Below, piece by piece: positions 17,369 through 32,850 of a DNA stretch of 45,020 nt. The position numbers and the translations under genes are program-made. Source of the stretch: Nanobdellota archaeon (lineage in GTDB: Archaea; Nanobdellota; Nanobdellia; CSSed11-243R1). A model generated the notes under the pieces. It did not search any database, had not been told where the DNA came from, and worked only from the letters and a program-made list of their open reading frames with translations. Location: positions 1-45,020 of the forward strand of contig JAGGYW010000015.1 of assembly GCA_021162365.1 (NCBI GenBank), written 5' to 3'. How positions within the stretch are numbered: the stretch's first letter is position 1; the number at the start of each line of letters is the position of its first letter.

Positions 17369-17488
17369 GGGCCTGTAGCTCAGTCTGGTCAGAGCGACTG
17401 GCTCTTAGCACTTTTCTTTGGGAGAAAGCTGCACCAAAGAAAGGAAGGTGAGACCAGTAGGTCGGGGGTTCAAATCCCCTCAGGCCCT
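17369..17488 (+). tRNA. tRNA-Lys(CTT), intron approx. 17408-17452 (position 37/38)
   Basis: Acceptor GGGCCTG/CAGGCCC, D stem GCTC/GAGC, anticodon stem ACTGG/CCAGT, T arm GGGGGTTCAAATCCCC; discriminator reads T. Confidence 0.88.
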
Positions 17489-17500
17489 TTCTTAAGTAGT

Positions 17501-17679
17501 GGGCCCGTGGCGCAATTGGTAGCGCACTCGCTTGGCACAACCTTTTCTTAGAAAGAAAAGCCTGACCAAAAGAAGAGGTTCCTGATTGCGAGAGGTTTCG
17601 GGTTCAAAGGCACCCTTTCTTAGAAAGAAAGCGTGCACGGAAAGAAATCCGTGGGTGCTCGGAATTCCCGACGGGTCCA
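17501..17679 (+). tRNA. tRNA-Ala(GGC) with two introns: approx. 17538-17586 (37/38) and 17609-17665 (T-loop, 58/59 or 59/60)
   Basis: Acceptor GGGCCCG/CGGGTCC, D stem GCGC/GCGC, anticodon stem CTCGC/GCGAG, T stem TCGGG/CCCGA rejoined only after removing the second insert. Confidence 0.85.
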
Positions 17680-20226: not shown

Positions 20227-20291
20227 GTAAATTCTCTTTTCTTTCAACAACTTTTATAAATCCAAATTCTTTCCTTCTGATAGTCGGGGAA

Positions 20292-20393
20292 GTCGGGGTA
20301 TTCCTCTCCACAGGGAAGGAACCCGATAGTTTAGTCTGGTAGAATGCCTGGCTCATGACCAGGTGATCGTGGGTTCAAATCCCACCCCCGACA
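20292..20393 (+). tRNA. tRNA-Met(CAT), elongator-like, with a non-canonical intron approx. 20300-20327 (8/9)
   Basis: GTCGGGG...CCCCGAC acceptor; CCTGG-CTCATGA-CCAGG; GTGGG-TTCAAAT-CCCAC; 28-nt insert flanked by a BHB-like motif (AAGT-CGGG-GTA-TTCC...GGAA-CCCG-ATA-GTTT). Confidence 0.8.
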
Positions 20394-22825: not shown

Positions 22826-22985
22826 GCCTCGGTAGCTCAGCCGGTAGAGCACCAGCCGACCTTTTTGGAAAAAAGCTCGACCAAAAAGCCGGGTGAACCT
22901 TGTAAGCACCCTTTTAGAAAAAGCGTGCACGGAAAAGGGTGCGCAGGCGAGCTGGGGGTCGAGGGTTCGATCCCCTCCCGAGGCT
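22826..22985 (+). tRNA. tRNA-Thr(TGT) with two introns: approx. 22857-22898 (30/31 or 31/32) and 22905-22949 (37/38)
   Basis: Acceptor GCCTCGG/CCGAGGC, D stem GCTC/GAGC, anticodon stem CCAGC/GCTGG, loop CTTGTAA isolated between two inserts; T arm GAGGGTTCGATCCCCTC. Confidence 0.85.
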
Positions 22986-31625: not shown

Positions 31626-32744
31626 ATGGAAGAAGGAACACTCCTAGAATATGAAAGTAACAACAAACTCTTAGTAGAAAGGGATGTGGGATTTGGATTC
31701 TTAGTATACAACACCTTTCACGAAAAAAGAAACGTATGTATAACTTCAAATGATATAGATGTGATACGTGAAAAGTTATGGAGAGGATGGAAACATTATC
31801 CTGGCATAAATAAATGGATACTACAAGCACCAGAAATAACTCTCTCTGATCTGAGCGAGCCTTATAATAATCCTGTGCTAAACACAAAAGGGATTTATGT
31901 GTACCACTATGTTCTTCAAAGGATAGACCTGGAAAAAGAAATTGAAGGAATAATAAAAGACAACGATAAATTTGATGGATTATCCATAGTAATGCTATCG
32001 GGGAAATACAACAACGTCGAACATAGAATAGCTGTATCAGACCTACGCGGTAAAAAAATACCTTATCTCCTATACGAAAGAGTAAAAACCAAATATGAGG
32101 AAGAATTTAAAGATGTCATCGACTCGTTAGATGAACAAAAACTAAACGCCCTCGAGAGAGAATTAGATATAAAAAGAATAGAGGCAGAGAGAGGATCAGT
32201 ACAAACACAATCAATATACAATCTACTAATAGGCCTGTACACACGTCTTGGGATTGATTTAGATACAAGAGAACATGGATGGATAATTAGTGGTATATGG
32301 GATGCTGTCCCAGCCGCTGATGTATATATATTCGTACCCAAATCAGGTATAAAGTTCGGATTAGGATTTATAGAGGACAGACAAACAATCGACAACATCA
32401 TGTTTTGGGAATATCATATTGGGATGGATATGATGAAGGATGTAATCTTCCTTAAAAAGGAGCTAGAAAGAAAAGAAGTATTAATCATAGATAAAAGCTA
32501 CTCAGGAAAAACACTAACCTACTTAAAACATCAAGTAAATACGTGTGGTGGAAATGCGCGTACAGTGGCCATGTTCCCAAAATCAGTAGAAGGGATAAGG
32601 AATATGGATTTCGTTGTTTTCTTGGACAGATTCTTAACAATTGATGAAGTACCTACAGGAAAAGAATGGTACGAAGGACTATTCTGGAAGTCTGTAAACA
32701 AAAAGAAAAACCCCACTAAAGACGATGGGGCTGAGCGGATTTGA
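31626..32744 (+). CDS. Protein with C-terminal phosphoribosyltransferase-like domain
   Basis: EVLIIDKSYSGKTLTYLKHQVNTCGGNARTVAMFPKS resembles the PRPP-binding loop; N-terminal region unassigned. Confidence 0.6.
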   Translation: MEEGTLLEYESNNKLLVERDVGFGFLVYNTFHEKRNVCITSNDIDVIREKLWRGWKHYPGINKWILQAPEITLSDLSEPYNNPVLNTKGIYVYHYVLQRIDLEKEIEGIIKDNDKFDGLSIVMLSGKYNNVEHRIAVSDLRGKKIPYLLYERVKTKYEEEFKDVIDSLDEQKLNALERELDIKRIEAERGSVQTQSIYNLLIGLYTRLGIDLDTREHGWIISGIWDAVPAADVYIFVPKSGIKFGLGFIEDRQTIDNIMFWEYHIGMDMMKDVIFLKKELERKEVLIIDKSYSGKTLTYLKHQVNTCGGNARTVAMFPKSVEGIRNMDFVVFLDRFLTIDEVPTGKEWYEGLFWKSVNKKKNPTKDDGAERI

Positions 32745-32850
32745 ACCGCTGACCTCCAGCTTTTCCGAAGCGAAATACATTTTTTGCTTAAGCTTTTTTC
32801 TAAAAAGCTTACCCGAAGCTGGCGTTCTAGCCAAGCTGAACTACAGCCCC
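32726..32850 (-). tRNA. tRNA-Pro(CGG), intron approx. 32762-32811 (37/38)
   Basis: Reverse complement GGGGCTG...CAGCCCC acceptor, CCAGC-TTCGGG.../GCTGG anticodon arm, AGCGGTTCAAATCCGCT T arm. Confidence 0.88.

What the first reader, a model, noticed from the sequence alone, without database searches (positions are those of the whole stretch)
20283..20393. tRNA-Met with an intron near position 8/9 and a duplicated 5' acceptor strand
AGTCGGGG occurs twice in a row (20282-20289 and 20291-20298) before the tRNA body. Removing 20300-20327 gives a regular tRNA GTCGGGGTAGTTTAG...CCCCGACA. The flanks fold as a full BHB (AAGT/GTTT, bulge ATA, CGGG/CCCG, bulge GTA, TTCC/GGAA). In the precursor the second acceptor copy is tied up with the intron, so the first copy could pair with the 3' CCCCGAC as a placeholder and be displaced after splicing. 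An intron this close to the acceptor stem is unusual.
Basis: partly seen in the sequence, partly recalled or inferred. Interest (0 to 1): 0.75.

Follow-up and report, generated by a model that had tools for sequence, protein, structure and literature searches.

The report
tRNA-Met with decoy acceptor strand
In a tiny-genome archaeon, the gene for the elongator methionine tRNA carries a 28-base intron right next to the acceptor stem plus a spare copy of the acceptor strand in its leader, which probably holds the other strand so that the splice site can fold before the real strand takes over.

Summary
The sequence claim is right. AGTCGGGG occurs at 20282-20289 and 20291-20298; removing 20300-20327 leaves a standard 74-nt tRNA(CAT), identical over positions 1-15 to the uninterrupted start of the orthologue in same-genus genome G001. 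The flanks can be drawn as a 3-4-3 bulge-helix-bulge, but its outer helix (two G.U pairs) is not favoured in silico. It is not an assembly error: a second species (G002) has the same double acceptor strand and an intron at the same site whose hairpin has diverged. The two are sisters in an Rpb2 tree; the arrangement was not seen elsewhere. Folding supports the placeholder idea: with copy 1, copy 1 pairs with the 3' acceptor and copy 2 with the intron; without copy 1 the splice helix disappears, in both species. The genome has an RNase P RNA and one alpha-type EndA, so splice-then-trim is available. The exchange step is inferred only; for the spliced G000 RNA the model still prefers copy 1. A second gene, tRNA-iMet, has an intron at 10/11 and a leader complementary to its own exon, suggesting that leaders assist splicing of acceptor-proximal introns here. 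New variant of archaeal BHB tRNA introns; no experiment.

The parts
20253..20260 (+). TATA-like box (TTTATAAA), promoter of the tRNA gene
   Evidence: Sequence; identical in G002, with the same spacing to copy 1. 28 nt from TATAAA to copy 1; other tRNA genes of the genome with a clear box mostly show 28-35 nt to G1.
20283..20289 (+). Copy 1 of the 5' acceptor strand (GTCGGGG), predicted placeholder in the transcribed leader
   Evidence: conserved in G002; pairs with 20386-20392, P 0.98 at 60 C.
20292..20299 (+). Copy 2 of the 5' acceptor strand (mature positions 1-7) and U8; exon 1
   Evidence: Pairs with the intron in the folded precursor (P 0.89 at 60 C); product equals the G001 orthologue.
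20300..20327 (+). 28-nt intron between positions 8 and 9, with CGGG/CCCG splice helix and inner hairpin
   Evidence: 3-4-3 BHB geometry; G002 homologue with a diverged hairpin that still pairs, including a C-G to U-A double change; absent from G001, G003, G006.
20328..20393 (+). Exon 2 of tRNA-Met(CAT): mature positions 9-73
   Evidence: Rfam RF00005 match 20327-20385; anticodon CAT at 20354-20356; the only CAT gene besides initiator tRNA among those found in the assembled genome.
20386..20392 (+). 3' acceptor strand CCCCGAC, the strand both copies compete for

Best explanation
The gene encodes elongator tRNA-Met(CAT) with a 28-nt BHB-type intron at 8/9. Transcription probably starts about 26-27 nt after the TATA box, so the transcript begins just before copy 1. 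As the RNA emerges, copy 2 folds with the intron into the splice hairpin. When the 3' end appears, copy 1 (the placeholder) pairs with CCCCGAC, closing an acceptor-like stem and stopping the 3' strand from tearing the splice helix open. EndA cuts after T20299 and after T20327 and a ligase joins the exons. Copy 2, now contiguous with the tRNA core, replaces copy 1, and RNase P removes the leader, including copy 1 (20283-20291). Shown: sequence, conservation in two species, product equal to the orthologue, in silico dependence of the splice helix on copy 1, presence of an RNase P RNA and an EndA gene. Inferred: start site, order of steps, strand exchange.
For: Orthologue G001 has the uninterrupted product and G002 the same double copy plus intron. 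4-fold sites of neighbouring genes differ by about 0.57 between G000 and G002 (108/189) and the intron's inner hairpin differs at 7 of 13 sites, yet GATAGTCGGGGAA is identical. Folding: copy1-3' acceptor 0.98 and copy2-intron 0.89 at 60 C (G000), 0.89 and 0.80 (G002); after deleting copy 1 the splice helix falls to 0.008 and 0.005; scrambled leaders reach the observed value in 2 of 300 for each species. RNase P RNA present at 73.5-75.6 bits, below the curated 84 but full-length, E 2e-20. EndA 176 aa, TIGR00324 above cut-off, close to the M. jannaschii enzyme 1A79, E 6.5e-39. Rpb2 tree: G000+G002 sisters, G001 outside, support 95/97. A second leader/intron case in tRNA-iMet of the same genome.
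Against: Only two species have it, so no compensatory change between the two copies can be seen. The strict outer helix is disfavoured by about 7 kcal/mol. For the spliced G000 RNA the nearest-neighbour model keeps copy 1 on the 3' strand (0.93 at 60 C), while in G002 copy 2 wins (0.92); tertiary structure would have to decide. The whole promoter-leader is fairly conserved (18 of 22 sites between TATA and copy 1), so conservation of copy 1 alone is weak evidence. No RNA data.
Confidence: 0.6

Rival explanations
1. The intron at 8/9 is real, but copy 1 is a passive relic of the local tandem duplication that came with intron gain; splicing would work without it.
For: Only two related genomes carry it; promoter-leader conservation is generally high; after splicing in G000 copy 1 would even compete with copy 2.
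Against: Deletion or scrambling abolishes the splice helix in silico in both species; neutral sites have diverged by more than half.
Confidence: 0.28
2. Copy 1 is the mature 5' strand and a 37-nt intron 20290-20326 is removed at 7/8; the product is the same sequence.
For: Removing 20290-20326 gives exactly the same tRNA; copy 1 lies at the usual distance from the TATA box (28 nt); no second trimming step would be needed.
Against: No BHB can be drawn with cuts after 20289 and 20326 (TCGG against ACCC does not pair fully), whereas 20299/20327 fits the 3-4-3 geometry.
Confidence: 0.08
3. Pseudogene or unspliced variant tRNA, or an assembly error.
For: The tRNA finders used here miss it or match it only in part.
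Against: Same structure in an independent genome, intact body and promoter, only elongator CAT gene found in a 91% complete genome.
Confidence: 0.03

Closest known systems
Archaeal BHB tRNA introns at noncanonical positions (Thermoproteales, Nanoarchaeota)
   Same: EndA-type BHB geometry, short intron, product is a normal tRNA; lineage rich in tRNA introns.
   Different: Position 8/9 is not among the examples given in PMC4090602 (20/21 to 59/60, extreme 3/4), and I found no report of a duplicated acceptor strand in the leader.
Split tRNAs of Nanoarchaeum equitans and Desulfurococcales
   Same: Flanking leader sequence pairs to help the splice motif form.
   Different: One continuous gene, cis-splicing; the leader mimics an exon strand instead of pairing with a separate transcript.
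Circularly permuted tRNAs (Thermofilum pendens tRNA-iMet and tRNA-Tyr)
   Same: Detected there through unusually long promoter-to-tRNA spacing (PMC3218864), as seen here for the two Met genes.
   Different: The 3' half is not upstream of the 5' half here.

Membership tests
Archaeal BHB tRNA intron | Two 3-nt bulges separated by a 4-bp helix, cut after the second bulge base | tested here: met
   CGGG/CCCG with GTA and ATA bulges by inspection, same in G002; outer helix weak.
Archaeal BHB tRNA intron | Removal restores a mature tRNA matching intronless orthologues | tested here: met
   GTCGGGGTAGTTTAG identical to G001.
Archaeal BHB tRNA intron | EndA splicing endonuclease in the genome | tested here: met
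   Single 176-aa EndA, TIGR00324.
Archaeal BHB tRNA intron | Cleavage and ligation observed | not testable with these tools
   No RNA data.
Split tRNA | Halves encoded at separate loci | tested here: not met
   Both exons lie together at 20292-20393.
Circularly permuted tRNA | 3' half upstream of 5' half | tested here: not met
   Exon order is normal.
Integrase attachment duplication at a tRNA gene | Direct repeats bound an inserted element | tested here: not met
   The copies are 2 nt apart.

The most novel reading that the evidence does not exclude
In this lineage 5' leaders act as built-in folding aids for splicing of acceptor-proximal introns: an acceptor-strand mimic with later strand exchange in tRNA-eMet, and an exon-antisense leader supplying the outer helix in tRNA-iMet.
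Probability: 0.4. Interest if true: 0.75.

Novelty: new variant of a known kind. Interest (0 to 1): 0.58.

Why it matters
It would show how a pre-tRNA can carry an intron whose splice motif needs the same nucleotides as the acceptor stem, would force splicing before RNase P trimming, and gives a small cis-acting strand-exchange switch that can be tested with two enzymes in a tube.

Tried and rejected
Assembly error: rejected, same arrangement in G002. 7/8 intron using copy 1: same product but no BHB. Attachment-site duplication, split or permuted gene: structure does not fit. Search for the double GTCGGGG in 380 genomes of the phylum gave 6 genomes, only G000 in a tRNA (G002 was not in that draw). 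Pattern for the same intron class in 382 genomes of the class gave 5 hits; only G000 and G002 have the Met context, the other three judged by the matched strings. Scan of viral contigs failed three times on the server side. Anticodon-loop regex over the genome was too noisy to use; replaced by acceptor plus T-arm search. A separate tRNA-Ile2(CAT) was not found; the search is not exhaustive, so the Met identity rests on the anticodon and resemblance to other Met genes.

Full report
Observation. Rfam's tRNA model finds only positions 8-63 and ARAGORN finds no tRNA in the window, as expected for tRNAs with archaeal introns scanned under bacterial settings.

Where it lies. The window is one contig of a 722,724-base, 91% complete genome. 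Same-genus genomes are G001 and G002. I assembled all 22 contigs from fetched stretches; the total is 722,724 bases, as stated for the genome, and located 30 tRNA genes by acceptor plus T-arm pairing.

Comparison. G001 reads GTCGGGGTAGTTTAG without interruption, and instead has introns in the D-loop and T-loop; G003 and G006 have a T-loop intron only. G002 reads GATAGTCGGGGAAGTCGGGGTATTCC...GGAACCCGATAGTTTAG like the window, with 7 of 13 central intron bases changed but the hairpin kept, including one C-G to U-A double change. An Rpb2 tree groups G000 with G002 (95/97) and leaves G001 outside, so intron plus copy were most simply gained in their ancestor. Neighbouring genes differ at 57% of 4-fold sites between G000 and G002, against full identity over 13 bases of copy 1 and its edges; since the stretch between TATA box and copy 1 is itself 18/22 identical, I count this as moderate evidence only.

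Folding. In the precursor copy 1 pairs with the 3' acceptor strand and copy 2 with the intron, from 37 to 80 C in G000 (0.998/0.96 at 37 C, 0.88/0.56 at 80 C) and less sharply in G002. Without copy 1 the second copy goes to the 3' strand and the splice helix probability falls below 0.02 in both. Scrambling the leader (300 per species) reaches the real value twice in each. Two caveats: the strict outer helix AAGU/GUUU costs about 7 kcal/mol relative to a 6-bp extension that hides the 3' bulge, and after splicing the model prefers copy 2 in G002 but copy 1 in G000. So the first half of the placeholder mechanism is supported computationally and the exchange is not.

Machinery. RNase P RNA is found full-length though below the curated score. 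One EndA of 176 aa resembles the M. jannaschii enzyme (homotetrameric, from established knowledge); no second subunit was seen at E <= 1. Ligase and RNase P proteins were not searched. Other tRNA genes with a clear TATA-like box mostly have it 28-35 nt before the mature start; the Met gene has 37-39 nt to copy 2 and 28-30 to copy 1, the initiator Met gene 51. The single-copy G001 gene has 40 nt, so a longer leader alone is not diagnostic. In N. equitans box A is 26-27 nt before the start site (PMC3491384), which would put the start at about 20279-20283; copy 1 is therefore probably transcribed.

A second case. Initiator tRNA-Met (C13:17542, minus) has an intron ATCCTCGATAAGGTTTTGTTGGGGAACCCAT at 10/11; removing it gives AGCGGGGTAGACTAGCCTGG, the same as uninterrupted G001 and, but for one acceptor base (AGCGGGATAG...), G002. 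Its splice helix GGGU/ACCC uses positions 5-8. Its long leader contains GCCCGGGTTTATCCAGGTAG, complementary in two blocks to exon 2 (duplex -26.7 kcal/mol, 0 of 2000 shuffles as strong), and the minimum-energy fold shows a bulge-helix-bulge-like junction at that site with the leader as outer helix, though with two extra unpaired bases. Both Met introns fall outside the repetitive intron family of the other tRNAs, by eye.

What is known. A review lists noncanonical archaeal tRNA introns at 20/21 to 59/60 and, as an extreme, 3/4 (PMC4090602). In what I read I found no mention of a duplicated acceptor strand in a leader; the library lacks most subscription papers, including the main intron catalogues, so absence of a report is not proven.

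Verdict. The intron reading is about as certain as sequence comparison allows (my estimate above 0.9). The placeholder function is more likely than not (0.6). It is a new variant of a known kind.

Noticed in passing
G000:C13, initiator tRNA-Met gene starting at 17542 on the minus strand: Intron at 10/11 absent from G001 and G002, with a long leader complementary to exon 2 in two blocks.
   Followed up: partly
window 17369-17488, 17501-17679, 22826-22985, 32726-32850 (minus) and most tRNA genes of G000: One to three introns per tRNA gene, many from one repetitive family (about GCACCCTTTCTT..AAGAAAGCGTGCACGGAAAGAA) in D-loop, anticodon loop and T-loop; similar stretches follow the tRNA genes in L031, L032 and L033.
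   Followed up: partly
G000:C22:15144-15421 (minus), L058, L060: RNase P RNA of G000, G001 and G002 has an insertion after CGTCCACCA (in G000 resembling the tRNA intron family) that G003 lacks; possibly a BHB intron in RNase P RNA.
   Followed up: partly
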